From Acanthornis magna (taxonomy: Eukaryota > Chordata > Aves > Passeriformes > Acanthizidae), in assembly GCA_036785705.1 (NCBI GenBank), contig JAWUZG010000018.1, positions 5,987,501 through 6,051,500 of the forward strand: 64,000 bases of DNA. Direction: 5' to 3'. Positions within the stretch are counted from its first letter, which is position 1. The number at the start of each line of letters is the position of its first letter. A program made the translations under genes and the position numbers. The notes beneath the pieces are model-generated. The model was not told the DNA's origin and did not search any database. It saw only the letters and a list, made by a program, of their open reading frames with translations. Of this stretch, positions 1 to 18,255 are shown piece after piece.

Positions 1-3000
1 CTTATTTGAAGCATGGCAAAATAAAATTTCTGTTCATTGTGGAAGTAGGGAAAAAACCTTACAAATACCAGCCCTAAAGGCAAAAAAAGCCAGAAGACAA
101 GCAAAAAGAATTCAAAATTTATTAACTCAAGCCTGTTTCTGAATTCTCAATGCACTGGATTGACATTGCCTAAAGTCCTCTATGACCCCAAATATTTAGG
201 TCATGTTCTCTCCTTGTATGCAAATATAATTAATTTAAAAAATATATACTTCACTAGTAAGTCAGAAGACTTCACTTATTTCTAATGCCACTTGAATTGT
301 TATTCTCCACTCTTGAAATGTGATTCTCAATCTAATTCTCATGTTGACTCTACCAACTGGTCTTTCTAAATAGTCCAGACTTCCATTAACAAAAGTTATG
401 AGAATCCTGTATTGCATACGATAAAGCAATTTTACGTATTTATGATGTTAAAGTTACATGAGTTAAAGTGGAAGCTGAGGTTTCAGTGATAACTAATACA
501 ATATGCAATGCTCTGCTTCCAATAAAATTTGCATTATGACCTGACATTACTTGGTGTATACCTGCAGTTCTGGTAACTCATTAGGGAATGGGAAGCACTC
601 ACCAAAATTTGCTATTTAATGAGCATGGAACACTGGTTCCCTCTGATGATTAATATCCAAATTTTCATCACATTTGAGTGCATGATTAAATTCACTGATT
701 TGTTCTGATCCTCTAAAGAGAAGTGATCCAAAAGCAACGTCTGAATCTAGATTTGCTCCATTTCCTTCCTCAAATCCCCTCTCTGGGAAATATTACCAAG
801 GAAAGTACAAATAGACTGCAAGCAACCAGAAAAGTCTCTGCAAAGGAAGAACTGCCTGTATTAAGACACTTGCTCCCACTGTAAATATATCAATCAACAC
901 ATATATTTACCTAACCAAGATACCCATGCAGTGTTATAATAAAACATAATAGTCAAGTAAAAAATACACAAATGTTCTAGTGGAATTCTGCATCCTCTGT
1001 GTCAAAAAAGGCATTAGAAGTTCTTTAATGGAATAAAAGGAAAGAAGTGGAGAATATTGCAAATGCAGACTTGAAATGAAAAATCTTCAAAGTATCATGC
1101 ACGGACACACACAAAGAAATTGTGCAGGCTCTGAACATGTCTTCTTTAGTTTTAAAGGCAGTTTAGCTAATAGCAAGAGATTTTATATTTTCCAGGGAGA
1201 CTTTAAAAGTAATTATTGTCTGTATGTTCGTTCTCCATAACTCTTCAGTGGCAGCCAGCAGAATTTCATTTTCTTCCCTTATTTCAGCAATAAATTTCTT
1301 TTAACTCTTTTGCCCTGACACAAAAGCAGTATTCAAGTCTAAGAAACAGAAGACTTGACCACGGCAAAGCCCCAGAATTTTCAGAGGTTGTCAAATCTGA
1401 CAATAGAAGAGTACTTCTCTGGGTTCAAGCTCATGTTCTGAGCATGCCTCAGTTCTTAAACACCACGTCTTTAAGGACATGGTAACATGTCACTGGCTTT
1501 TAGGAGTAAGAAAGGATGCTCACGAATTGCATTTGGATCCCAGGTTAATTTTTCATCTTGGATAGATTGCTACTCAGAAAGAACAAGCACTGCAGGAACT
1601 TCTATTGACAACGTGCAAACAAAAAAACTTCATAGGCTTTATAGTTCCTTAATTAATTCTTAAATTTTACAAGCAAAAAACACCAATGGATATTTATATT
1701 CCTATGATATATTTTCTCAATGATCAGCTAAACCGGCTATTCACGTCTTATTGTAGCGACTTCTTATGGAACAAGAATTTTACACTTCATTCTGTAAAGG
1801 ACATAAAGCCAGAACATATCCAGTTCTGAATACACAGCAACTTAGTCTATGGAGCATAAAAGTTCAACTTCCTAAAGCAAAGCATTTTTCATTCCATCCA
1901 GTACTGTATAACCAAATACAGGCTACTAAATATTTCACTCTGCTTATAACTTGCACACTGAGTTCCTGGGTCACTTCTAACTGGCAGTGCCAGACACCTA
2001 GGTTACTGCATGGCTTGGGACAAGAGGTACCGTTGGAAAAAATACTATGGAAAGAAAGAGGCAGAAATAATCTCCTCTGTTGTAGCAGGAAAGAGGAAAC
2101 AGATGATTCCCTGGGGTTTCTTTCAGTGTGAGAACATCCTGCAGCTTTAAAACATTTACTTGAGAAATCAGTATTACTTTGCAGATTAGACTCACATGAA
2201 AGTTAGCAAATGGCAACATGCCAGAGCACTCAGCTGAGTGCTCCTGTCAATGTGGGAATCCCTCCAATAATCAGGAAAAATCCTGAATTATATTAAGAAG
2301 CAGAGGATTAACAGCTTGCACCCTCTACCCTGGGATCTGAGTTTTACGTCCTTTAATTTCTCAGCCCTAGTCCCCAAGTGCAATACATACAAAAACACAG
2401 ACACTCCCTTATACCACACCCAGATGAATCCTTAGATAACAGAAATTAAAGTAAAACTCAGCAGAGCTGATGGAGGCAAACATGCTTCCAAAGACATAGC
2501 CTCAGTTGGCTTATAGCACTGGGTTATTTGAGTTGGTGGGCAAATGCTGGAAGAGCAGATGGGCTCATTAATACCTGTGTGTCTCATCTGCGTGCAAACG
2601 CCCACAACTAAAAATGAGAAAACCAAATTATTATTCCTAGATGCTGTCAGTGTTTAATTTTAACCAGGTATTCCTAAGTCACACGTGTCAGTTTTCAACA
2701 AGGCAGAAATATTAAACCATCTAATTTGGCACCCATGCAACATAAGTCTTCTCACAGACTGTGGGTAACATTAAATAATCCGGCAAGATCCAGGAAAGCA
2801 ATATGAATGGCATGAAAAAGTTAGTTAGACTCATAAAAGCTACGGACCCAATCAGCACTATTTGACAGCCTTGGTGTCAATCACAGACTCGATGGTAGTG
2901 GTTCAACAGGCAATAGCCATGGAAGCAGTGCACATCAGGCTGAGAAACAGCTCCTACCACCACCTTCACTGAACCTGAAGATAAAAGGTGGCCCTTACTT

Positions 3001-3589
3001 CCCAACACTATGATTCATATTTCAAAAGCACAAGGTGTTTCTTAAATATTTATCCTTTAGATACCATAAGCTATTTCTGAAAGAGGGCAAGAGGGACCTC
3101 CCAGCTATAACTTATCTTAAAATAACAGTAAGGGATAAATGTGTATGAAATTAATAAATCCTGGAGTGTCCCATGAGTATGCAAGTCTGATTTGCACTTC
3201 CATGTTATTTCCCTTATCACTTCATATATGCACTTATATGGCTGAACTAAAATCAGCCTGTCTTCACCTAACATATTGATAAAATTCTGCAATTGTCCAA
3301 AAAAAAACCTCTCTCAAAATCCAGTTCCATTCGAAGTCAAATGTTTGGAACCAAGTTCTGAAATTGTTTAGGGCACTATTGTAAGCAGCCAAGGTGGAAG
3401 GATGCAAACATCCAATGGTTTTTACTTATCTGAGTACACCTCAGTGGTTTGATCCCTCTCATAAGCACTTTATAAGGGTTACCTTTATTACAAGGAGAAG
3501 AAACAATACCAAAATAACTGTTAAAATTTATGCATATGTACAAGGTAAATACCCAGCCCCACAGATGTGTCAGCAATAATCCCTCACCT

Positions 3590-3710
3590 GTTTGCACAGC
3601 TGCTGATGGTGACATTGCCCAATGCAAAGATCACAGGAGGCTGCACCACATCATTTCCGATAGTCACTTCCAGCCAACACACCTGTGATTCTCTGATCCT
3701 CCTTCTACAG
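3590..3710 (+). repeat. Possible degraded CR1 3' end
   Basis: The stretch ends with wording typical of the CR1 3' terminus: 'acttccagcc', then 'tgtgattctctgat'. It is heavily diverged and I see no upstream CR1 body. On the opposite strand the same bases look superficially like an exon ending at a gtgagg donor, but the repeat reading explains them better. Low confidence. Confidence 0.3.
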
Positions 3711-6135
3711 CTCACTTATCCCTTTCTGTGAACTTTAAACTGTGGGCAATTAAGCCTCAGAGACTAGACCGCAAACAAACAAGTCTCTTTCTACTCCCTA
3801 TAAAGGGAATTCACTTTCACATATGTCAAACTCCTGTGCCATGCCATCTCCCCTTAAACCACCTACACTGGGCCAGGGAGGTGCCTTTAGCTCAGCCTCA
3901 GCCTGACTCCTGCTGCCTCCACTGTACTCCTTGGCATGTGGACAGAGAAGTCTCTCTCTCATTTGATAGGAGGTCCAGGTCCCCAAGATGCCCCAGCTAA
4001 AAAAGTATCACCAACAGTTTCAAACAGGCTTCTTCAAGGACACTTGTCTTTCCAAGGAAAGGCAGCAAGAAGAAGAGAAGCGTAGGAATTGTACATGCAG
4101 CTCTGGTACTGAACAGAGAAAGAAATTCAGAAATTGCACTGCTCTATTTACATCAGCTCCCCAAATTATCCAGGTAACACAGTTATCCTTTGGTGACTTC
4201 TCATTCTCGGAGCTCAGGCTTCATTCTAATCACCATTTCCAAAGGTGGGAATTCTACCTCTGGCCTTCTCAGATAAGGTGACATCAGATTCCACACAAGT
4301 GGGCAGTTCCAGCTGCAATCCTGATTGGGGCTAGATCTTCCCCTTCAGAGGGGTTTACAAAAAGCACCTGGTATATCATACATGAGATACAGTTAACCGC
4401 TTTTAGACAACCAGAGCTCTAGATCTTAACTTGAAACAAATCCAAGACAAAAAAAAAATCTCCAGTGTTATCACCCCTGTAGGAAGGACCTAGAGAGATA
4501 TGGGTCATTTGTTCAAATAATCTTGTCTTGAAGAATGGCTTAAGAGTTCAAAAGCCTGAGGGGTATTGCAAGAATGAATTTTACTTTCCAGGCAAGACAT
4601 GAAACCCAGACATTTCTGTGGCAGACATACCAGCATATCCTTTCAGATCCCTTTGAGTATATTTTCTGCTCTTTGGACTTGAAATCTTGAAGCAATACAA
4701 CACGCTCTCATTTTTTAATTAAGTTTCCTCTAGGCAAGGCCGAAGAAGGAATATCAATGAGTGTCTCTGAAGGTGGGAGCTAGCAGAAAACCCCACTAAC
4801 AGGCCCATTGACCTAACATTCGCAGACTTTACCATTCCTTTACCATTACTTTCCACCAATCCAGAGCGCAACAAATAACAGCTTTTGATGTTCTTAGTCA
4901 TGGTACATTATCAGGGAATATACAATCAACTTCTCTTTGAAAAGGTTGACTGCTATTACTCTTCAAAGTGTATTTATGTATTATACTCTCCTGCCTGCAG
5001 TGCCAGACTATGTACTGCATATTCCAACAGGACAAAATTAAAATGTTGCACAGCTGCTGATGGTTATTCAAACTCTACTTGGGCTGCTTTTTGTTTTTTT
5101 TTAAGATAGAAATGTTCTCTTAACTGAAGGTGTGTTTGCTGAGAGAAAATAATTGTCATGAAGGCAAAACTGTCTCCTCTCACAGGAAAGAAACTCAAGT
5201 GGGGTAACAGGATACATATCAGACAACCATCTGTAGGAGACCTCATGAAAAGTGCAATTCCTTCTGATACTAGGTTTATATTCTTGCCAGTCACACTTTA
5301 CAAACTAGCAAAGATTGGTGAAAGGAACTCTAATGATACACAGCTATTAAGAAAGGAATAGCTGATTCTGAATAGCTTACACCAATTGCTCCCCATATCC
5401 TCCTCCTTTTGGAAGATCTACTTATAGGCAATACATTGAAAATTAAGCATTAGTTATTCCAAATCTGAACACTTTACAAAAGTTTCATGTCATAAGGAAA
5501 TGTTTTCTAGTAATACCAAACTATTAATGTTGCATGGTGCAATTACATAATACTAAGTATATTGTCGGCCACTGTAGAAGAGGAGGAACATAAAGCAAAG
5601 CATAAGGTTTATTTTGACTTTATACCTACCAAAATAACTTTTTTATTTCCTTGTTAGTTAGCAAGCTTGGCCTCTACTTCAAATGTTTTTCAAAATGCTA
5701 AAACACTCACACTGTTTTGTTTTGACTTATTTTTAATTTAGCTCGCTAGTAAAAAAAAAAAAAAGAAAAAAATTAATTAAATTCTGTTCTCAACTGTGTG
5801 GTTAATATATGTTGCCTGCATTTGAAACCCACAGGACTCTCAGTGCTTTCAAATCAATGGATTCAGAAAAGATTAAGTCACACTGTTTTTTCCATCAAAA
5901 AGTCACTATGATATCCAGATGCAAAATTATTACTCTAAACAGAGATATGAGAAGATGTTGACAGTAATTGCTCTTGTATCACTTTGGTTTTTTCCATTGA
6001 AATGTACAGCCTCTCTCAGCTTCTCTATGTAATCACATGCACACACACACATCCAAAAAAACACATTTAAATAAAGGGATAGATCAATATCAAGGTATAT
6101 GAAGGTAATCATATTCCCAGGAAATAAAGAAGGAG

Positions 6136-6196
6136 TTTTTTGGTTGGTTGGTTGGTTGGTTGGGTTTTTTGGTTTTGGGTTTTGTTTTTTTTTTTG
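6136..6196. repeat. G/T simple repeat, (TTGG)n plus T-rich tract
   Basis: About six TTGG units are followed by mixed TTTTGG/TTTTGGG units and a run of T. It is a simple repeat with no gene content. Confidence 0.85.
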
Positions 6197-9100
6197 CTTT
6201 CCCCACAGATGAAAACAACAGCAGGGAAACAACAAGAATATAACATTATGCTGAAGGTCCAAATGTCAAACTTCAGAAACATACTTGCAATATACATACA
6301 CACAAATTAAAAATATGTAAATATGCACCTTTTAATGATCAAATTTCAAAGTTACAGATCATGACTTCATTAAAACACTATTTTATTCACCCTGCCAAGA
6401 AAACTTGCCAGCTGGTAGAGCTCACCTCTACCCTTCTTAAGGTTTCTGGTTTGCTTCAGGAAAATCTTGAATGTGCACCTCCATTATTAGGACACAGAAG
6501 AAATCCCTTTGCCCTGAAGGTTATCAGCATGCCACTCAGAGTATTTTATGTATTAAAGTCTCAAAAGGAAAATACATTTCCTAAGTTCCTCCTCCAGGCA
6601 CAATCCAAATGATGAAGTTCAGCAACAGTAAGAGAACACTTAAATGACCAACAGTTTAAAAATGAAAACTTCCCTGTGCTCTCTACAGAACAGATTTACT
6701 GGAACGAATTGGGTAATAGATTTTTTCAGGTGGGCTTAACATTTTAATTAGCAATTAAGTCATTTTACACCCTAATGATAATGAGGGAATTATCAAACAC
6801 ATTGTCACAAACTAACACAAGTTTTTTATACAGTTTATACAATTAATTTATTTACACAAGGTTGAATTTTAGAACAAATTATGATGCCTTCTCCAAGTAA
6901 CGATGTGTATTTAATCATATTATCAGTAGTATAAATATACCAATATGCCTGTATCAGTCAAGTTACATTCCACAATAATATCTCATGCAATTAATCAATG
7001 TAATTATATCCCTGCCATGAAAATATAAAAGATTATTTAAATCATCCAAGGGAAGGCTGTAATTTTTCATCTCTTACTGATTAAATTCTATTTTTCAGTA
7101 AGGGTTAAAGTGTACATTACGCTTTCTATCTTCCTACTTGTATTTTCCAGTGTGTTAATTCTTTTTTCGTAAATCAGTTCAGATACCCCTGCTGCCAATC
7201 TGCTCAACCAGCAGAGGAAGATGCCACACTAAGCTGTTTCTTTATATAAGAAAAGAAAGTCTCTCTGCCCATCTCCTTACCAAGCCAGCCAGGAATTAGT
7301 TGAGGAGGACTGTAGCATCCATTTCTTTTGGATCCTTCTCAGAAGGAAAACTCTAGCAATTCACCTACCTAGGAAGACCTCTGACTATACAATATACAAT
7401 CAGCAAATCTTTCCCTACTCCAGAAGTGTCTGGGGTGGACCAAATGATGGGAGCGAACCAGCCACAAACACCATCTGAACGGTGTTTGGAAAAGATCAAT
7501 TTCAACTGCTCCTGTTTTCCTCACTCTGTGACTCAGTCATTCTCCTCCTGTATTCCTCCTCCCACCTTCACTACTGTCTTAACAATTACCAAGCCGAACT
7601 TCACTTACCCAGAACTGATTGTGTTGTATTTTTGTTCTCTCTTCTCCCCTAAATGTATCTTAGATCCAAAACAAGAGAATTGGAGAGAGCTGGTACCTAC
7701 TGGCTCCTCCTCCTTTTTGGGAAAGATCCAGATCCATCCCACTTAACATTCACCTTACAGAAATCAGTGCACAGAGAAAGGCAAGTGCCATGGTCAGGTC
7801 ACCACCCCTATCTTCCCAATCGTCCTCTGGAGGCCTCTACTCATCTCCATTACCTACACATATGTCCTCAGGCAACTGCCTACTTAATTTGGGCATTTAA
7901 GTTAATAGGAATTTCTGGGGCTCACAGTCACGTGATGAATTTAGAAGAGCTCTTCCTTTAAAAAACAAAACCTACAAGGAAAAGAGGGAAACGGAGTTAG
8001 TTACAATTCTGCTCACTAAAACTTAACTATCTGTATTTTCCTTGTTTTCCTCTTTGTTTCTAGTAGCACGGCTAAATATTTTAAATAGTTTCTGCTTGGC
8101 AGAACAAATGGATTCAAGCCCTCACTAATAAGTTCTTCAACTCCAAATTACTCATGACTGTAAGAAAAGTAGCAAAAAGAGCAATTTAAAATTTATAACC
8201 TCCTTAATATTGTGTACAGTCTTGACGAAAATACACAGACAAACCTAAAAAGCATTTAAGTAACTGTGCTCCACTTGCCAAACACAGTAAAGGCACTTCC
8301 AGGGAATGATTATTTCTGTTTAGCTTCAGCTGTCTGTAGTTTGCGGGGCTTTTCTGACACAGGCAAAGAGGAATTCAGCCAGAAATCTGAAACCTGTTAC
8401 ATTTAAGAACACATTTATGTATAGTAACTAGGTGACTGATGACTTCATAGGAAGATCCAAACCTATTTAAAATTTGGGGAGAAAGCTGGGTGGGTATTTT
8501 TACTTCCTGTTTATTTTGCACACCACAGAGGGTTTAAAAAAAAAAAAAAAAACAGAGAGAGACAGAAACAGACAGTTGCTCCCCAAGAGATTCTATACAT
8601 TTCTTAGTCTCCTGGAGTACCACATTTATAAAATCTTGCATACTATTGTAAGAGCTATAAAAAAATCTTTCTATAGCTTTAAGGAAATGCACTCAAAAGC
8701 AAATTTTTGAAACTAAGAACGTGGATGGCAATGGCAAATTTGGGTGGCTGAGATCCTGCAACTGCTGGAAGTTGATCAGATCCACGTAACATCAAGGCAG
8801 GATTTCTCCTCCCTCTGCAGGGGCTGCCAGCAGTCCCTGGCTGCCAATATTCTGTCAGGCAGAATAGTGAGTGGTACAAGAAGGAGCAGAAAAACACTTT
8901 AAAATGCCTGTTCAAACCTTACTTCCCTTCATACCCCCCAAACATACAGAGCTTGATAGAATATGAAGATAATCAATTTCCTCAAAGGCTGGCATGGCTC
9001 AGTTCCTCCAGCATTCCCTGACACAGCTTTTCCAGCAGCTCCTCCTTCCTGCTGACATTCAGGCTGATGGAGCAGCTGATGGGGTAAGCTGCCTCCTCCA

Positions 9101-10843
9101 GTGCGGGACCACTGGAACTTTCTCACACAGAATGCACAGTTTTTCACTCCACACTTCTAATTGGCATAGAAGCCACAAATTAATAATAATGGAAGAATAC
9201 AGTCCCGACAATACAAAAGAAAAGCACTGAGAAAATTATTCCTACATCTATATGTTAAAAGGGACAAATGTGCCAAAAACAGGAAGGAAAAGAAATTGTA
9301 TTTTAAATTGCTGGTCTTTCCTCTTCCTTGGAAAATGAGAGCATCGTAGTGTCCCCCAATCCAACCAATGACTAAAGTGCATTAAGAAATGCAGTTTGAT
9401 CCTAACTTGTAAAGGTTTTCTAGTTTTTTACCAATACATGTAAAAAACATGCCCATGAGAAGGGGGAAAAAATCATAATACAGAGCTAGAAATTAGAAAT
9501 TTAAATTAAGAATTTAACATGTGCCTTCCTTAAACACTTTCTCCTCTATATTTTACTAAGCTTGTTGTTTTCCATTTTTAAATACATTTGCCTCAGAGCA
9601 ATATTGTAAGTATTTAGATTCACTTGGTTTAAATTTGGAAACAAGCGTTAGAGCCTCTAACCTGACCTGCTGTGTAAAACTGGCTAGAACATTTTTTTTG
9701 CTCAAGTACAGCTACGAGAGGACAGCAACTAATCTGAGCAATGCACATCTTTCTAAAAGCCACCCAGTCTTGACTAGAAGAATTTATCGCATACTCCGAC
9801 TGGTTTATTTCAGGATACAATTATGCTTCTAATTAAAAATGTGTGCCTGATTTCTAATTTGAATTTGTCTTGCTTCAATTCCCAGCCATTGCTTTTATTC
9901 ATGCCTTTTTCTCGTTAGAGTTTAGAGCTCTCCAGTACTTGCTGCTTCCTCTGTTTGAGAGGACAATGGATTTCTCCTAAACAGGCTACATATCTGCATA
10001 CAGAAACACACAAAACCAGAGTATCCCATCCCCATTACCTGAGATCAACATCTCTACAAAGTCTAAAAACGTGTATGTAGAAGTTGCAACATTTTAAGTC
10101 CTCTCTTTTTATAAAGACTGGTTTGCTAATAACAAAATATAATGATTTTATTTAGCACCTTATCAAAGAAACAGCACTGACATAAATTTTCATCATTTGA
10201 GAAGTATGAGTTACTTGATGCCCATTTCCTTTCCCTGCTACACTTAGCACAAAGCTCCAGGTTTAAGTTTGCCAGGATTAAGGCCCCACTGCAATGATCT
10301 ACCCCTAAATATGCACAGTCAAGTTGACATACACAGGCTGACAAACTGATGATGACAGAAGCATTAATACAAATTTTAGATGGCATGCAGCATCTATTTG
10401 TACATTAGTATTTTAGGCAAAGAGACAAAGTATGAAATAGTCTCCTAGGAGTTTCTCCCACCTCTCTTTTTCATTTTACGAGTTCCCCTCCTACAATCTC
10501 CTTTTCCCAATGAAAGAAATGCAGGGACAAGAGAACTTGCCCCTTTTCTTGTCCTTTTCTTTTCTTGACAGCTCTAATACAAAGACTTGTCCTTGTAACA
10601 GGCTCTTTAGCAAGAAAAGGACCCTGTGTTGTACAGGAAGGTCATAGTCAGAGTTTTACTACTGCAAAAACAAACAAAAGCCCTTATCTTAAAAAGATAT
10701 GAAATCATATTTGGCAGGCATGGAAACCTTATGAAATTCCTAGGAAATGTGATCCACAATTACCTTCTTAATAAATACAATTCTTGATCATTTTTCTTAG
10801 AAATGTTGATCTCCTGTTATTAACATTTCTGCTTATATTTTAA

Positions 10844-10848
10844 AACAC
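10844..10848. repeat. Target-site duplication, left copy (AACAC)
   Basis: AACAC directly precedes the first LTR base here and is repeated directly after the other LTR at 18251-18255. Extending to six bases breaks the match, so the duplication is 5 bp. Five bp is usual for class III (ERV-L-like) elements, against 6 bp for class II and 4 bp for class I. Confidence 0.85.
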
Positions 10849-11387
10849 TGTCTTCGTTTGATAGACAGGTGTCTGCTTAGGAAGGTGGGAACCTTCCTTG
10901 GAACAGAGAATGTGAATCCCCTTCCCTCCAAATTATTATAACTTTAGGATCAAGGGCTCTCAGGCAAAGGTATGGGAAAAGGAATAAGAGTTTTTTACTA
11001 GTATCTATAATGAGGTAAACAATCAGTAACAAAAAAACAGTAAACAAGGTGAAAAAAAACAGTAAACAAAACCAGAAACTCAGTGGAATATGTCCCTGGA
11101 CTGTCAGGCACTTTCCCGGTTGGTGCAGTCACGGTCACGGCCAGCAGGGGCGCTGTTGGGCTCCTAGACCAGCCGGACAGGTGCGATGACTCCCGGGAAG
11201 CTGCAGATGGCGCTGTGGCACGAGGTTGGATCTGTGTCACGCACGTAATGGCCGACGGGCTGGAGCAGGGTGGAGCGCAGATGGACAAAGCGCAGCAAAG
11301 GGATGGAACGGCCAGGTGGGCTCACCTGAGCCAGCCAGCAGAGGAGGCAGCAGGAGTTCCGCAGCTGTGGCAGGCAAGGCGTGGGGT

Positions 11388-11440
11388 GGCAGCAGGCAGG
11401 GCGAGGAGCGGCAGCAGGCAGGGCGAGGAGCGGCAGCAGG
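11388..11440 (-). repeat. 22-bp tandem repeat in 3' LTR
   Basis: Two exact 22-bp units (11388-11409 and 11410-11431, each beginning ggcagcaggcagg on the + strand) are followed by a 9-bp partial third unit. The same array occurs in the other LTR. This is a local slippage duplication inside the GC-rich part of the LTR. Confidence 0.85.
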
Positions 11441-11763
11441 CGAGGGGTCTCGTCTTGCTGCAGCGCAGCTGGGAAACGCGCCCTCCCGGAGGGTAGAAGG
11501 GACCGGGATCCCGTCCTCCCCCGTCCCAAGTGAGAACTCACCCAACAGGTAGAGAGAAAAACCAGCGCAAAACCGGGCCTTTTCTGCAATTGTAGCCAAA
11601 AAAACAGAGCCGCCTTTTTCCCCCTGCTCTCTCCTCCAAGAGCCCCGAGCGAGTGAGTGAGTGTCCCCTTATCAAATCTTGCCATCTCTTGTTCCTCTGC
11701 CTGGCCAGCGAAAAGGCTTTGTCTCCTTTGTGAGCGTAGATGGCCCTTAAGTACCGGTCATTA

Positions 11764-11776
11764 GTTGCTTAGCAAC
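11764..11776. promoter_or_regulatory. RFX/X-box-like palindrome in 3' LTR U3
   Basis: GTTGCTTAGCAAC is a perfect 6+1+6 palindrome about 40 bp inside the U3 end of the LTR. It resembles the symmetrical X-box bound by RFX transcription factors. The palindrome is seen directly; factor binding is inferred. The copy in the 5' LTR is at 18197-18209. Confidence 0.45.
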
Positions 11777-11817
11777 AGAATGGGAAAAATTCCACTTGCC
11801 CCCCCCAACCTTCCACA

Positions 11818-11844
11818 TTATCCACCCCGAATTTTTTCCATTCC
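11818..11844 (-). other. Candidate polypurine tract
   Basis: On the minus strand the bases just upstream of the 3' LTR are purine-rich (GGAATGGAAAAAA, then GGGGTGGATAA) and abut the LTR's TG. This is the position expected for the plus-strand primer. The tract is interrupted by TTC and by single T bases, so it is weaker than a classical tract. The call rests mainly on position. Confidence 0.45.
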
Positions 11845-11947
11845 AACATATTACATTGAACTTAAGCCTTTAAACTATATATATATACAAGCATTACTCT
11901 GATTATATACATACAGATATGGATACAGGCACAATGTTATGGGCAGT

Positions 11948-14900
11948 TCAACCCCAACTGAGGTCCCCCTGAGGTATGCATCGTGTCTCTCCATCCTCTT
12001 GCATCACCCACCAGGTACACCCTGGTCCCTGAGCGAAGACAACCCCACGGGTGGGTCTATCTTTGCTCAAGGCAGAATTAATCCAAACAGTTTTCCCCAG
12101 CATGCCTCTCATTTGCACCACTGGAACCTTATCCCCGTCTGCTGTTTGCAAGGGTTCAGATTGGGCAGGGCCAGCCCTGTTGGTGGAGCCTCGGGTGTTA
12201 ACTAGCCAGGTGGCCTTGGCTAAATGCTGTTCCCAATTTTTGAAAGTCCCCCCACCTAGAGCCTTCAAGGTGGTTTTTAGCAGGCCGTTGCATCGCTCTA
12301 CTTTACCAGCAGCAGGTGCGTGATAAGGAATGTGGTACACCCACTCAATGCCATGTTCCTTAGCCCAGGTGTTTATGAGGCTATTTTTGAAATGAGTCCC
12401 GTTGTCCGACTCAATTCTCTCAGGGGTACCATGCCTCCAAAGGACTTGCCTTTCAAGGCCCAGGATGGTGTTACGGGCAGTGGCATGAGGCACAGGGTAG
12501 GTCTCCAGCCACCCAGTGGTGGCCTCTACCATTGTGAGCACGTAGCGCTTGCCGTGGCGGGTTTGAGGCAATGTGATGTAATCGATCTGCCAGGCCTCCC
12601 CATACTTGTATTTGGTCCATCTTCCCCCATACCACAGGGGTTTCACCCGCTTGGCTTGCTTGATGGCAGCGCATGTCTCACAGTTATGGATCACCTGGGA
12701 GATACAGTCCATAGTTAGATCCACCCCTCGGTCTCGTGCCCACTTATAGGTGGCATCTCTGCCCTGATGGCCTGAGGCATCATGGGCCCATCGGGCTAGG
12801 AACAACTCTCCTTTGTGCTGCCAATCTAAATCTACCTGTGACACCTCTATTTTTGCAGCCTGATCTACTTGTTCATTGTTTCGGTGTTCCTCATTAGCTC
12901 GGCTCTTGGGGACATGGGCATCTACATGACGGACTTTCACAGGTAGCTTCTCTACCCGACTGGCAATGTCTCGCCATTCGTCCGCAGCCCAGATTGGTCT
13001 TCCTCTACGTTGCCAGTTGGCCTTTTTCCACCTTTCCAACCAACCCCACAGAGCATTGGCTACCATCCATGAATCGGTGTACAGGTATAGCTTTGGCCAC
13101 TTCTCTCTTTCAGCAAGGTCCAGGGCCAGCTGAACGGCTTTGAGTTCGGCAAGTTGGCTTGATCCACCTTCTCCTTCAGTAGCTTCTGCGACCTGCCGTG
13201 TGGGGCTCCATACAGCTGCTTTCCATTTTCGGTTTGCCCCCACAATACGACAGGAACCATCAGTGAAGAGAGCGTAGCACGTTTCATCTTGTGGCAGTTG
13301 GTTGTACGGTGGAGCTTCCTCAGCGCGAGTCACCTGTTCCTGCTCCTCTTCATCAGTGAGACCAAAGTTTTCACCTTCGGGCCAATTTGTAATTATTTCC
13401 AAGATCCCAGGGCGATTCGGGCTTCCAATACGGGCGCGCTGCGTGATGAGGGCAATCCATTTACTCCACGTGGCATCGGTGGCGTGGTGGGTAGAGGGAA
13501 CCTTTCCCTTGAACATCCACCCCAGCACCGGTAGTCGGGGTGCAAGAAGAAGTTGTGCTTCCGTGCCAATAACTTCTGAGGCGGCTTGGACGCCTTCATA
13601 GGCTGCCAGAATTTCCTTCTCTGTGGGAGTGTAGTTGGCTTCGGACCCTCTGTAGCTTCGGCTCCAGAATCCCAGTGGACGACCTCGAGTCTCACCAGGC
13701 ACCTTCTGCCAAAGGCTCCAGGACAGACCATTGCCCCCGGCTGCAGAGTAGAGCACATTCTTCACTTCTGGTCCTGTCCTGACTGGGCCAAGGGCTACCG
13801 CATGAGCGATCTCTTGCTTGATCTGGGCGAAGGCTTGTTGTTGTTCAGGGCCCCAATGGAAATCATTCTTCTTGCGTGTCACCAGGTAGAGAGGGCTCAC
13901 AATCTGGCTGTACTCAGGGATGTGCATCCTCCAGAAGCCTATGGCGCCTAGGAAAGCTTGTGTCTCCTTCTTGTTGGTTGGTGGGGACATCGCTGTGATT
14001 TTATTGATGACCTCGGTGGGGATCTGACGCCGTCCATCTTGCCACTTCACCCCCAGGAACTGGATCTCTTTGGCAGGCCCCTTGACTTTGCTCCTTTTGA
14101 TGGCGAGACCGGCTCCCAGAAGAATCTGGATGATTTTCTCTCCTTTCTCAAACACTTCTTCTGCTGTGCCCCCCCACACAATGATGTCATCGATGTATTG
14201 CAGATGTTCCGGAGCCTCACCCTTTTCCAGTGCAGCCTGGATCAGTCCATGGCAGATGGTGGGACTGTGTTTCCACCCCTGGGGCAGTCGGTTCCAGGTG
14301 TACTGCACGCCCCTCCAGGTGAAAGCAAACTGAGGCCTGCACTCTGCTGCCAGAGGAATGGAGAAAAATGCGTTCGCAATGTCAATAGTGGCATACCACT
14401 TTGCTGCTTTGGACTCCAGCTCATACTGGAGCTCCAGCATGTCTGGCACGGCAGCGCTCAGCGGTGGAGTCACCTCATTCAAAGCACGATAGTCCACAGT
14501 CAATCTCCAATCTCCATCAGATCTGCGCACAGGCCAGATGGGGCTGTTGAAGGGTGAGTGGGCCTTGCTGACCACCCCTTGGCTCTCCAGCTCACGGATC
14601 AGCTTGTGGATGGGAATCACAGCATCTCTATTCGTTCGATACTGCCGGCGGTGCACTGTTGAGGTGGCAATTGGTACCCGTTGTTCCTCCTCCTTCAAGA
14701 GTCCAACTGCAGAAGGGTTCTCTGATAGTCCAGGCAAGGTGTTCAATTGCCTAACGCCCTCTGCCTCAACAGCAGCTATTCCAAAAGCCCACCTGAGTCC
14801 TTTCGGGTCTTTGAAATAGCCATTCCGGAGGAAATCTATGCCCAGAATACACGGGGCCTTTGGACCAGTCACAATGGGATGTTTCTGCCACTCCTTCCCA

Positions 14901-15130
14901 GTCAGGCTCACCTCGGCTTCCACCAGAGTTAACTCTTGTGATCCCCCCGTCACCCCAGCAATAGAAATGGGTTCTGCCCCAACATGTCCCGATGGCATTA
15001 GGGTACACTGCGCACCTGTATCAACCAATGCTTCATATTTTTGTGGCTCTGATGTACCAGGCCATCGAATCCACACAGTCCAAAAGACACGGTTTTCCCA
15101 TGCCTCTACCTGGCTAGAGGCAGGGCCCCT
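11948..15130 (-). CDS. pol: Pol polyprotein (protease, RT, RNase H, integrase) of the ERV
   Basis: This is the replication and integration polyprotein of the provirus, uninterrupted from the codon after the gag UAG to a TGA at 11950-11948 (1,060 codons). It has no ATG near its start, which fits expression as a Gag-Pol readthrough product. Numbering from the GTG at 15076, the protease has DTGA at residues 19-22 and LGID at 78-81. The reverse transcriptase has the first catalytic Asp at 232, LPQGW at 264-268 and YIDD at 294-297. RNase H has D606, E644, D668 and D738. The integrase has the zinc ligands H765, H770, C799 and C802, and the triad D832, D891 and E927 with 35 residues between the last two. 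All catalytic residues are present. No dUTPase follows. ERV-L-like assignment is by general resemblance and needs a phylogeny. Confidence 0.95.
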   Translation of the reverse strand, partial: RGPASSQVEAWENRVFWTVWIRWPGTSEPQKYEALVDTGAQCTLMPSGHVGAEPISIAGVTGGSQELTLVEAEVSLTGKEWQKHPIVTGPKAPCILGIDFLRNGYFKDPKGLRWAFGIAAVEAEGVRQLNTLPGLSENPSAVGLLKEEEQRVPIATSTVHRRQYRTNRDAVIPIHKLIRELESQGVVSKAHSPFNSPIWPVRRSDGDWRLTVDYRALNEVTPPLSAAVPDMLELQYELESKAAKWYATIDIANAFFSIPLAAECRPQFAFTWRGVQYTWNRLPQGWKHSPTICHGLIQAALEKGEAPEHLQYIDDIIVWGGTAEEVFEKGEKIIQILLGAGLAIKRSKVKGPAKEIQFLGVKWQDGRRQIPTEVINKITAMSPPTNKKETQAFLGAIGFWRMHIPEYSQIVSPLYLVTRKKNDFHWGPEQQQAFAQIKQEIAHAVALGPVRTGPEVKNVLYSAAGGNGLSWSLWQKVPGETRGRPLGFWSRSYRGSEANYTPTEKEILAAYEGVQAASEVIGTEAQLLLAPRLPVLGWMFKGKVPSTHHATDATWSKWIALITQRARIGSPNRPGILEIITNWPEGENFGLTDEEEQEQVTRAEEAPPYNQLPQDETCYALFTDGSCRIVGANRKWKAAVWSPTRQVAEATEGEGGSSQLAELKAVQLALDLAEREKWPKLYLYTDSWMVANALWGWLERWKKANWQRRGRPIWAADEWRDIASRVEKLPVKVRHVDAHVPKSRANEEHRNNEQVDQAAKIEVSQVDLDWQHKGELFLARWAHDASGHQGRDATYKWARDRGVDLTMDCISQVIHNCETCAAIKQAKRVKPLWYGGRWTKYKYGEAWQIDYITLPQTRHGKRYVLTMVEATTGWLETYPVPHATARNTILGLERQVLWRHGTPERIESDNGTHFKNSLINTWAKEHGIEWVYHIPYHAPAAGKVERCNGLLKTTLKALGGGTFKNWEQHLAKATWLVNTRGSTNRAGPAQSEPLQTADGDKVPVVQMRGMLGKTVWINSALSKDRPTRGVVFAQGPGCTWWVMQEDGETRCIPQGDLSWG

Positions 15131-15136
15131 CTAGCC
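15112..15136 (-). promoter_or_regulatory. Hairpin enclosing the gag UAG stop (candidate readthrough element)
   Basis: On the minus strand GGCTAGAGG (15136-15128) and CCTCTAGCC (15120-15112) are perfect reverse complements separated by a 7-nt loop, giving a 9-bp stem. The gag stop codon TAG (15133-15131) lies in the 5' arm. Gag and pol share a frame across this codon, so suppression of one UAG gives Gag-Pol, as in gammaretroviruses. The pairing is seen directly. Its role is an inference, and the known murine leukaemia virus signal is a pseudoknot placed downstream of the stop instead. Confidence 0.6.
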
Positions 15137-17161
15137 CTGGTTATCATTCCCTTCCTGGGCATACATTCCACCATCAAGGGAATCTGACACAACATTTTCC
15201 CTTCTGTTGTACTCAGCAGGTCGGCTACGGGAAGCTGAGGCTACCTTCGCTCTGGCAGAACCCCCTCGGCTAGCGTTGCCCTCCTTAAGCTGACGCACCC
15301 GTTCTGCCAGGACAGAAGTGGGCTTCCCATCCCACCTATTCATGTCTTCCCCGTGGTCATGCAGAAAGAACCACAACTCAGCTCGTGGGGTGTACCCTCT
15401 CTCTCTAGCTGGGGGACGTCGGGCTCTGGTGTTGGGGCCTGTGACTCTCACTGGTGCCACACTGTTTTTCCTCACCTCCTCCCTGATCTCGTCCCTGATC
15501 TCCTCCCTCATCTCCCTCATCTCTTCTTTCAACTCCTTAACCACAGCAGAGATCTGAGCCTGCATTGGGCCATTGATCACACTTGCATAATGCCTGAGCT
15601 TGTCAGCTACAGAGCTCACTGTCTCACGGTTGTCATCGGCATTAATTGTTGCAATGTAGGTGACATATTGGGTTGGCCCTAGGCTTGCCAGGTTCCACAA
15701 CATTTGCCCTGTGCACCTGACCTTGTCAGGATCATTTTCGTGCTGTCCGTCCCTCCCAAAAAGCACCTCCTGTACTGCCACTTCTCTCAGCCGTTGGATC
15801 GCTTCCTCAACGGTCTTCCAGGGCAATCTACGGTAGTTCTCCTGCATTCTGTCTTTGTGAACAAACCTCTCTCTTACACTCATTAAAAGCCTCTCCCAGA
15901 GAGAAATGGGTCCTGCCTCCCTCACGAACACCTTGTCAACACCCCCGTCCAGGGCCACGGATCCCAAATTCCTGGCCTCATTACCATCCAGCTGCACGCC
16001 TGGGCCCATGCGGTCCCAAACCCGAAGTAACCAGGTTGAGAAAGCCTCGCCCTTCCGCCGCACAATGTCATTGTGCAGAGTACGGATAGTGTCGTACGAC
16101 AGGGACTCGGTGATGATTATAGGCTCAGGCTCCCCTGCTGGTTGTGAGGGCCCTGGTTCCCCATCATCATTAACTGGGCGTACTGATTTGGTCTTATACT
16201 TCCTCCGCTGCACAGGGGCAACCGCTGCTGGCTGTGACTGCCCTTGAGGTTCAGCTGGAACCTGAACGGTTGTAATGTCCGTGGATTCTGCTGCTGTACC
16301 ATCCGACTCTTCCCCTGTGGGGCAAGAAGAGGGCTTCCCACCAGTTGAGGAAGTGTATTCCCTCAACACCTGACGCATCTTTTCCTCTATTACCTCCATC
16401 CAATTTGGTTGGCTCATTTCTGGGGCAGGCTGTTGGACAGGGTCAGGCCGTGTGGCAGGGTCAGGCTCAGGGACAGGGTCAGGTTTGGGGGTACTCTCAG
16501 GCTCTGGGACAGCCTCGGGCTCTGTAGCAGCATCCCTAGTCCCTGTGTCAACATCCCTAGTTTCTGTGGCAACATCCCTAGTTTCTATGGCAGCGTCCCT
16601 AGTCTCCGTGGCGACATCCCTAGTCCCTGCAGCAACATCCCTAGTCCCTGTGGCAACGTCTCTGGTCTCCGTGGCAACATCCCTAGTCTTCGTGGCAACA
16701 TCCCTAGTCCCTGTGGCAGCTGTTAGAGTGGTTACCCAGGGCAGTCTCCCCCTTTCTCGGGATGCAAAGAGGAATAGACCTATCAGCAATGCCAACCACT
16801 GTACGATGTCATTAGCATTTAGAGAGTATATGACCCCTCCGAGCCCTGGTAGGGTAGGCCCAAAGAAAGGGGTGAAGGGTTGAGAAAAAATTCCCCCTGG
16901 TGTCATCTCCTCACAAAAGGTACCATTACCAAACAGACTCCAAAAACATGTACTCACGGTGTTAAAGCCCTGTAACCAAGTGCCCGCCGCCCAAAGGACG
17001 TGAAAAATCCATAAATTCCTCACCTTATTGACCCATTGTAAGAACTGGATAACAACCACTGCGACCTTAGTCATAGGACCCATGTTTAGACAGGGAGCTG
17101 CAAATGGGAAAAATGTGGCCACGAGTATGTGCCAGCCAAACCAAGGTATGCTAGACCACAT
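15131..17161 (-). CDS. gag: Gag polyprotein with N-terminal membrane-like module
   Basis: This is the inferred structural polyprotein of the provirus, 676 codons from the first in-frame ATG (17161-17159, A at -3) to a UAG. The frame is open up to a stop at 17224-17222 but holds no earlier ATG. Residues 1-135 are strongly hydrophobic, with segments near 9-26, 30-44, 49-63 and 118-133. The last is followed by RERGR, and an NGT glycosylation sequon lies at about 79 in the loop. There is no Gly at position 2 for myristoylation. Residues about 150-213 are nine TRDVATE-type heptads, followed by a PEP/PDP proline-rich linker. A likely capsid-like helical region spans about 355-535, a charged coiled coil about 537-565, then an Arg-rich tail. 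I see no CCHC zinc knuckle. Gag identity rests on its position before pol; an internal ATG at 16417 could start a shorter form. Confidence 0.85.
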   Translation of the reverse strand: MWSSIPWFGWHILVATFFPFAAPCLNMGPMTKVAVVVIQFLQWVNKVRNLWIFHVLWAAGTWLQGFNTVSTCFWSLFGNGTFCEEMTPGGIFSQPFTPFFGPTLPGLGGVIYSLNANDIVQWLALLIGLFLFASRERGRLPWVTTLTAATGTRDVATKTRDVATETRDVATGTRDVAAGTRDVATETRDAAIETRDVATETRDVDTGTRDAATEPEAVPEPESTPKPDPVPEPDPATRPDPVQQPAPEMSQPNWMEVIEEKMRQVLREYTSSTGGKPSSCPTGEESDGTAAESTDITTVQVPAEPQGQSQPAAVAPVQRRKYKTKSVRPVNDDGEPGPSQPAGEPEPIIITESLSYDTIRTLHNDIVRRKGEAFSTWLLRVWDRMGPGVQLDGNEARNLGSVALDGGVDKVFVREAGPISLWERLLMSVRERFVHKDRMQENYRRLPWKTVEEAIQRLREVAVQEVLFGRDGQHENDPDKVRCTGQMLWNLASLGPTQYVTYIATINADDNRETVSSVADKLRHYASVINGPMQAQISAVVKELKEEMREMREEIRDEIREEVRKNSVAPVRVTGPNTRARRPPARERGYTPRAELWFFLHDHGEDMNRWDGKPTSVLAERVRQLKEGNASRGGSARAKVASASRSRPAEYNRRENVVSDSLDGGMYAQEGNDNQG
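16531..16719 (-). repeat. 21-bp minisatellite within gag (9 units)
   Basis: Nine consecutive 21-bp units, on the + strand each of the type catccctagtccctgtggca plus one base, occupy exactly 189 bp. They encode the TRDVATE heptads of Gag. The units differ by several substitutions, so the array is older than this insertion, but its multiple-of-three unit keeps the frame open. Copy number probably varies between family members. Confidence 0.95.
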
Positions 17162-17258
17162 GGTGTCACTTAGTGAGGTTTCTATGTTCAGCACACTAAA
17201 AAATGGGTCTCCCAGAAACTGTTATTCCTTTTGCACCTTTTTCTCTCAATGCTCTCGT

Positions 17259-17276
17259 GCCCCACGTTGGGCGCCA
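17259..17276 (-). other. Primer-binding site, tRNA-Lys1,2 type
   Basis: On the minus strand TGGCGCCCAACGTGGGGC starts 5 nt after the end of the 5' LTR (spacer GATTT). This 18-mer is the complement of the 3' end of tRNA-Lys1,2, as used by several betaretroviruses and some lentiviruses. The leader between it and the gag ATG is only about 97 nt, leaving little room for a long packaging signal unless that extends into gag. Confidence 0.92.
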
Positions 17277-17820
17277 AAATCTGTCTTCGTTTGATAGACA
17301 GGTGTCTGCTTAGGAAGGTGGGAACCTTCCTTGGAACAGAGAATGTGAATCCCCTTCCCTCCAAATTATTATAACTTTAGGATCAAGGGCTCTCAGGCAA
17401 AGGTATGGGAAAAGGAATAAGAGTTTTTTACTAGTATCTATAATGAGGTAAACAATCAGTAACAAAAAAACAGTAAACAAGGTGAAAAAAAACAGTAAAC
17501 AAAACCAGAAACTCAGTGGAATATGTCCCTGGACTGTCAGGCACTTTCCCGGTTGGTGCAGTCACGGTCACGGCCAGCAGGGGCGCTGTTGGGCTCCTAG
17601 ACCAGCCGGACAGGTGCGATGACTCCCGGGAAGCTGCAGATGGCGCTGTGGCACGAGGTTGGATCTGTGTCACGCACGTAATGGCCGACGGGCTGGAGCA
17701 GGGTGGAGCGCAGATGGACAAAGCGCAGCAAAGGGATGGAACGGCCAGGTGGGCTCACCTGAGCCAGCCAGCAGAGGAGGCAGCAGGAGTTCCGCAGCTG
17801 TGGCAGGCAAGGCGTGGGGT

Positions 17821-17873
17821 GGCAGCAGGCAGGGCGAGGAGCGGCAGCAGGCAGGGCGAGGAGCGGCAGCAGG
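17821..17873 (-). repeat. 22-bp tandem repeat in 5' LTR
   Basis: Same 2.4-unit array as at 11388-11440 in the 3' LTR, unchanged between copies. Confidence 0.85.
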
Positions 17874-18196
17874 CGAGGGGTCTCGTCTTGCTGCAGCGCA
17901 GCTGGGAAACGCGCCCTCCCGGAGGGTAGAAGGGACCGGGATCCCGTCCTCCCCCGTCCCAAGTGAGAACTCACCCAACAGGTAGAGAGAAAAACCAGCG
18001 CAAAACCGGGCCTTTTCTGCAATTGTAGCCAAAAAAACAGAGCCGCCTTTTTCCCCCTGCTCTCTCCTCCAAGAGCCCCGAGCGAGTGAGTGAGTGTCCC
18101 CTTATCAAATCTTGCCATCTCTTGTTCCTCTGCCTGGCCAGCGAAAAGGCTTTGTCTCCTTTGTGAGCGTAGATGGCCCTTAAGTACCGGTCATTA

Positions 18197-18209
18197 GTTG
18201 CTTAGCAAC
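18197..18209. promoter_or_regulatory. RFX/X-box-like palindrome in 5' LTR U3
   Basis: GTTGCTTAGCAAC, a perfect 6+1+6 palindrome about 40 bp from the U3 end of the LTR that would drive the provirus. It resembles an RFX-factor X-box. Binding is not shown by the sequence. Confidence 0.45.
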
Positions 18210-18250
18210 AGAATGGGAAAAATTCCACTTGCCCCCCCCAACCTTCCACA

Positions 18251-18255
18251 AACAC
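18251..18255. repeat. Target-site duplication, right copy (AACAC)
   Basis: Matches AACAC at 10844-10848 and abuts the CA end of the + strand LTR copy. The uninterrupted match supports a single integration event with no later rearrangement of the ends. Confidence 0.85.

What the first reader, a model, noticed from the sequence alone, without database searches (positions are those of the whole stretch)
10849..18250. Very young, coding-intact ERV-L-like provirus
The two 969-bp LTRs show no difference that I can find, the 5-bp target duplication is intact, and gag and pol are open with every catalytic residue present. Most bird ERV copies are broken or reduced to solo LTRs. This one is a candidate for a polymorphic and possibly still active element.
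Basis: partly seen in the sequence, partly recalled or inferred. Interest (0 to 1): 0.8.

Follow-up and report, generated by a model that had tools for sequence, protein, structure and literature searches.

The report
Young, intact songbird endogenous retrovirus copy
This is a recently inserted, undamaged-looking copy of a virus-like jumping element that lacks an envelope gene and belongs to a family already known from bird genomes; it is a well-preserved example rather than a new kind of thing, with two features of its first gene that deserve a closer look.

Summary
The two 969-bp LTRs are identical at 969 of 969 positions and AACAC flanks both ends. The provirus lies on the minus strand. Gag (676 aa) and pro-pol (1060 aa) are open, in one frame, separated by a single UAG. 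Protease, RT, RNase H and integrase are recognisable; there is no env. RT and integrase score best against foamy-virus enzymes. Of 120 listed RT relatives, 117 have names, all birds; the most similar are songbirds at 94-95%.

It is a class III (ERVL-superfamily) element resembling the published, recently active TguERVL2 of finches (PMC6523648), not ERV-L in the strict sense: the primer site is of the tRNA-Lys type and no dUTPase was found. At 2.3e-9 changes per site per year, zero differences give under about 0.67 million years. Polymorphism, copy number and activity could not be tested; the genome search did not complete.

Beyond the finding: a Gag N-terminus that looks membrane-spanning, clearer in relatives than in this copy, and a strongly structured UAG junction resembling a read-through signal. 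New member of a known kind; modest interest.

The parts
10844..10848 (.). target-site duplication AACAC (left copy)
18251..18255 (.). target-site duplication AACAC (right copy)
17282..18250 (-). 5' LTR, 969 bp
   Evidence: identical to the other LTR; read
10849..11817 (-). 3' LTR, 969 bp
17259..17276 (-). primer-binding site, tRNA-Lys type, starting 5 nt after the LTR end
   Evidence: by eye 16 of 18 positions equal the lysine-tRNA site printed for the stork endogenous foamy virus in PMC6955096; the exact isoacceptor is recalled
15131..17161 (-). gag, 676 aa, ending in UAG at 15131-15133
   Evidence: relatives
16727..17161 (-). Gag residues 1-145: hydrophobic module, modelled helices 4-25, 29-48, 51-65, 116-143, sequon N79
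16520..16708 (-). nine tandem 7-residue repeats (TRDVATE-like) in Gag
15572..15859 (-). capsid C-terminal domain of Gag (residues about 435-530)
   Evidence: AlphaFold model; VIA-align matches
15101..15136 (-). structured gag-pol junction: perfect 9-bp hairpin spanning the UAG (15112-15136), or 8-nt spacer plus perfect 7-bp stem with 8-nt loop (15101-15122)
11948..15130 (-). pro-pol, 1060 aa, same frame as gag
14822..15043 (-). aspartic protease region (DTGA)
   Evidence: below Pfam's cut-off
14045..14521 (-). reverse transcriptase (YIDD)
12848..13180 (-). RNase H
12320..12793 (-). integrase zinc-binding domain (below Pfam's cut-off) and catalytic core (above it)
11818..11844 (-). region before the 3' LTR where a polypurine tract is expected; only an 8-nt purine run and a G-rich run

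Best explanation
A recent germ-line insertion of an env-less class III (ERVL-superfamily) LTR retrotransposon of songbirds, close in design to TguERVL2. Steps inferred from anatomy: the 5' LTR drives a full-length RNA; Gag is made, and a fraction of ribosomes read through the UAG, helped by a strong RNA structure, to make Gag-Pro-Pol; particles assemble inside the cell, probably on an internal membrane through the hydrophobic Gag N-terminus; tRNA-Lys primes reverse transcription; integrase makes a 5-bp staggered cut. Shown: anatomy, open frames, active-site motifs, identical LTRs, target duplication, kinship. Inferred: transcription, read-through, membrane assembly, present-day activity.
Against: No AATAAA or ATTAAA in the LTR and no clean polypurine tract. 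The primer site starts 5 nt after the LTR; in the stork element of PMC6955096 it starts 2 nt after. One of the three private pol changes is non-conservative. Eight of nine relatives that match both sides of the gag-pol junction lack 32-33 residues there, and the ninth reads a residue at the stop; if real and not gene-model artefacts, those copies have no stop. LTR identity can also come from gene conversion or assembly collapse; neither was tested. Kinship to TguERVL2 rests on a description, not on a sequence comparison.
Confidence: 0.9

Rival explanations
1. The insertion is old and the LTRs look identical because of gene conversion or because the assembler filled one LTR from the other.
For: Neither process leaves a mark visible in a single sequence; the tool that would show other copies (genome search) did not answer.
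Against: Not only the LTRs are fresh: both long frames are open, the window departs from relatives at only 3 of 547 conserved pol columns, the internal region keeps CpG o/e 0.42 against 0.15-0.17 in the flanks, and the TSD is intact.
Confidence: 0.07
2. Gag or pol is kept because the host uses it (domesticated locus), not because the element is new.
For: Open frames alone would fit.
Against: The untranslated LTRs and the TSD are intact as well, which selection on a protein would not keep.
Confidence: 0.02
3. The UAG between gag and pol is an inactivating mutation and not a read-through signal, so this copy cannot make Gag-Pol.
For: Function was not tested. Of nine relatives that match both sides of the junction none shows a stop: P0142 reads a lysine there and eight lack 32-33 residues across it. 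These are gene models, which cannot contain a stop; no DNA of relatives was available for a covariation test.
Against: Six of 11 relatives that match only the gag end stop at or within two residues of the same place. The 69-nt window at the stop is the most stable of 489 in the provirus, and 0 of 1000 codon-preserving shuffles reach the energy of the 42-nt core. One-frame gag-pol with a stop is described for other elements related to class III (passages of PMC8278194 and PMC2717909).
Confidence: 0.08

Closest known systems
TguERVL2_I and TguERVL2_I_Ucy (estrildid finches; PMC6523648, section 3.4 read, other passages seen)
   Same: songbird ERVL superfamily, two long ORFs in one frame, AP-RT-RH-INT, no intact env, recently active; ERVL assigned there by 5-bp TSD
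MuERV-L / MERVL (passages of PMC5930517, PMC1224870, PMC2717909)
   Same: env-less, class III, no Gag zinc finger, intracellular life cycle suggested; its particles accumulate in the ER
   Different: dUTPase after integrase in MuERV-L, none found here; Leu primer site (recalled) against Lys type here
XtERV-S of Xenopus (passages of PMC8278194)
   Same: class III gag and pol in one frame separated by a stop, YIDD, identical LTRs, 5-bp TSD in its relatives
   Different: has env, tRNA-Ser primer site, TGA stop, dUTPase-like segment after integrase
Foamy viruses and avian ERV-Spuma (passages of PMC6955096, PMC8278194)
   Same: nearest solved RT and integrase; lysine-tRNA primer site
   Different: env and accessory genes; pol from its own start codon in another frame; YIDD not typical
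Murine leukaemia virus read-through signal (passages of PMC4178896)
   Same: UAG, 8-nt spacer, then a stem
   Different: possible second stem here is 7 bp with two wobbles and a 38-nt connecting stretch, against 18 nt in MuLV; a competing 9-bp hairpin spans the stop

Membership tests
Class III ERV / ERVL (ERV3) superfamily | RT and integrase nearest to spumaviruses | tested here: met
   PFV integrase E 1.8e-15; RT best entries E from 6.3e-40, known to me as foamy RTs (recalled; the tables name them Pr125Pol and Peptidase A9/RT/RNase H). Judged by score; no tree with reference classes was made
Class III ERV / ERVL (ERV3) superfamily | 5-bp target-site duplication | tested here: met
   AACAC; criterion stated in PMC6523648
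Class III ERV / ERVL (ERV3) superfamily | no CCHC zinc finger in Gag | tested here: met
   pattern absent in gag and pol; trait stated in PMC1224870
Class III ERV / ERVL (ERV3) superfamily | protease in frame with pol | tested here: met
ERV-L in the strict sense (MuERV-L, HERV-L) | tRNA-Leu primer-binding site (recalled as defining) | tested here: not met
   site is of the tRNA-Lys type; PMC1224870 notes that primer sites are an inconsistent marker
ERV-L in the strict sense (MuERV-L, HERV-L) | dUTPase after integrase | tested here: not met
   no dUTPase family at E <= 1 in gag or in any of the three pol pieces
ERV-L in the strict sense (MuERV-L, HERV-L) | no env | tested here: met
   130 bp between pol stop and 3' LTR
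TguERVL2 | sequence similarity to the family consensus | not testable with these tools
   the consensus is not held; architecture agrees with PMC6523648
MuLV-type read-through signal | in-frame UAG with 8-nt spacer and stem 1 | tested here: met
   perfect 7-bp stem after exactly 8 nt; 618 of 20000 codon-preserving shuffles also have a perfect 7-bp stem starting 5-9 nt downstream
MuLV-type read-through signal | compact pseudoknot (stem 2) | tested here: inconclusive
   best stem 2 is 7 bp with two wobbles, 38 nt away

The most novel reading that the evidence does not exclude
In this avian class III lineage Gag carries its own multi-pass membrane domain in place of a matrix domain, so an element without env would anchor its capsid lattice in the ER by itself. 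Its UAG junction is a bistable RNA: a hairpin that hides the stop gives way, as the ribosome opens it, to a gammaretrovirus-like stem exactly 8 nt downstream. That would be convergent evolution of a read-through switch in class III.
Probability: 0.3. Interest if true: 0.55.

Novelty: new member of a known kind. Interest (0 to 1): 0.3.

Why it matters
Intact young copies show which bird ERV lineages can still move and give markers for populations; songbird ERV insertions are known to segregate and to affect genes (PMC7341801, abstract and passages seen: an ERVK insertion dated under 534,000 years near NDP in crows). This copy also shows the family's Gag and junction undamaged, so a membrane-anchored Gag and read-through in class III become directly testable questions.

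Full report
What is there. The window holds one complete provirus at 10849-18250, on the minus strand. The two LTRs are 969 bp and do not differ at any position; AACAC lies on both sides. Gag runs from 17161 to a UAG at 15131-15133 (676 aa) and pro-pol from 15130 to 11948 (1060 aa). They share one frame, so the only interruption between them is that UAG. The leader is 120 nt, and 130 nt separate the pol stop from the 3' LTR, which leaves no room for env. blastn at E <= 0.01 found no other copy or fragment of the element in the rest of the window.

Enzymes. Pfam recognises RT, RNase H (and the connection domain) and the integrase core above its cut-offs; the protease and the integrase zinc-binding domain fall below theirs. 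DTGA, YIDD and the integrase D850, D909, E945 set are present. Against solved structures the integrase piece scores best with PFV integrase. The RT piece scores best with entries named Pr125Pol and Peptidase A9/RT/RNase H (from 6.3e-40), which I recognise as foamy-virus RTs, then p80 RTs (from 4.1e-33, gammaretroviral by recall), and HIV-1 RTs near 1e-17. No zinc finger was found in Gag and no dUTPase family in any of the four pieces scanned. By the traits in PMC1224870 and the 5-bp rule used for songbirds in PMC6523648 this is class III, ERVL superfamily. I do not file it under ERV-L in the strict sense: the primer site is of the lysine type (by eye 16 of 18 positions equal to the lysine site printed in PMC6955096) and the dUTPase is missing.

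Kin. The RT search gave 428 proteins at E <= 0.001 among 3906 candidates; 120 were listed, 117 of them with names, all birds. By bit score a crane protein (80% identical) comes first; by identity the nearest are songbirds, 94% over the whole piece or 95% over 85% of it, many of them swallow copies. I built a tree of the window and 35 of the 120 listed rows, picked to span the species, under a simple model. The window lies in a passerine clade of 18 rows (support 100/99); the other 18 rows are crane, storks, ibis, duck, eagle, parrot, pigeon, auk and three unnamed. That fits long residence in birds more than a recent arrival from outside, and agrees with the vertical inheritance reported for TguERVL2 among three songbirds (PMC6523648, section 3.4 read). 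Gag is far more variable: 63 proteins at E <= 0.001 among 7995 scored, and 36-69% identity for the 17 of them that I aligned.

Age. Zero differences over 2 x 969 sites gives a 95% upper bound of about 0.67 million years at 2.3e-9 per site per year. That rate is the collared-flycatcher figure quoted in PMC10542752 (passage seen); I take it as per year. Other rates that I recall move the bound to 0.34-0.82. CpG o/e is 0.55 in the LTR and 0.42 inside against 0.15-0.17 in the flanks. The window departs from relatives at 3 of 547 near-invariant pol columns, one of them non-conservatively; these columns were judged on 50, 80 (of 109), 51 and 20 relatives for the four pol pieces. So the copy is young and looks coding-competent. 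Whether it is polymorphic or moves today is not shown: the genome search did not complete, and no population or expression data were at hand.

The UAG junction. The only perfect 9-bp hairpin (loop 3-20) in the element lies on the gag stop; 20 letter shuffles of the element have 0.45 such hairpins on average, up to 4, so its existence is unremarkable and its position is the point. Codon-preserving shuffles give a hairpin of that kind (loop 3-12) containing the stop in 28 of 20000 cases, and reach the folding energy of the 42-nt core in 0 of 1000; for three longer or shifted stretches 7, 6 and 67 of 1000. Of 489 overlapping windows of 69 nt along the element, the one beginning 12 nt before the stop is the most stable; the next ones upstream rank 13th and lower. 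With dinucleotide shuffles the z-score is a modest -2.3, with 3 of 200 folding as well. The same bases can instead form a perfect 7-bp stem with an 8-nt loop after exactly 8 nt, the spacing described for MuLV (PMC4178896, passage); 618 of 20000 shuffles, and 7 of 1694 codons of gag and pol, have a comparable stem, so this alone is weak. PMC3835772 (passages) reports conserved pseudoknots after the gag stop in gammaretroviruses but none in two epsilonretroviruses.

Relatives at the junction. Of 172 fetched proteins, 11 match only the gag end; six of these stop at or two residues before the same place, five do not reach it or run into something else. Nine match both sides: P0142 reads one residue at the stop, and eight lack 32-33 residues there, seven of them by the same length. 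These are gene models, so a predicted intron may hide a stop; a real deletion that fuses gag and pol in those copies is the alternative, and would weaken the read-through reading. A stop between in-frame gag and pol is described for XtERV-S (PMC8278194) and Ovex1 (PMC2717909), so read-through near this group is not new as an idea. I saw no RNA structure described for it in the passages I read; the ten paper searches were not aimed at that question alone, so I make no claim that it is unpublished.

Verdict. As a thing it is a new, well-preserved member of a known songbird family.

Noticed in passing
16727-17161 (minus): Gag N-terminus of 145 residues looks like a multi-pass membrane module with one N-glycosylation sequon; conserved in passerine relatives, most of which are more hydrophobic there than this copy.
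   Followed up: partly
16520-16708 (minus): Nine tandem 21-bp units in gag coding a TRDVATE heptad, more copies than relatives show. Such repeats may lie behind weak hits to unrelated repeat proteins, perhaps also the herpesvirus-glycoprotein hit reported for TguERVL2 gag (inference).
   Followed up: partly
17259-17281 and 11818-11844: The primer site begins 5 nt after the LTR end and the 3' LTR is preceded by only a weak, interrupted purine tract; the ends of the linear DNA may be trimmed unusually (inference).
   Followed up: no
17282-18250: The LTR has no AATAAA or ATTAAA in the sense strand (an AGTAAA at LTR position 819, TATAA at 878) and carries its own 22-bp tandem repeats, identical in both LTRs.
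   Followed up: no
11948-15130 (pol): Three differences at columns that are at least 97% one residue in relatives, one of them non-conservative.
   Followed up: no
15101-15136 and relatives P0009, P0013, P0084, P0144, P0145, P0149, P0150, P0151: Eight gene models from relatives lack 32-33 residues across the gag-pol junction; predicted intron or real deletion is undecided.
   Followed up: no
1-10843 and 18256-64000: AT-rich flanks with low CpG, no tRNA, no Rfam match, and no Pfam match in the ten ORFs of 120 aa or more; the gene context is unknown.
   Followed up: partly
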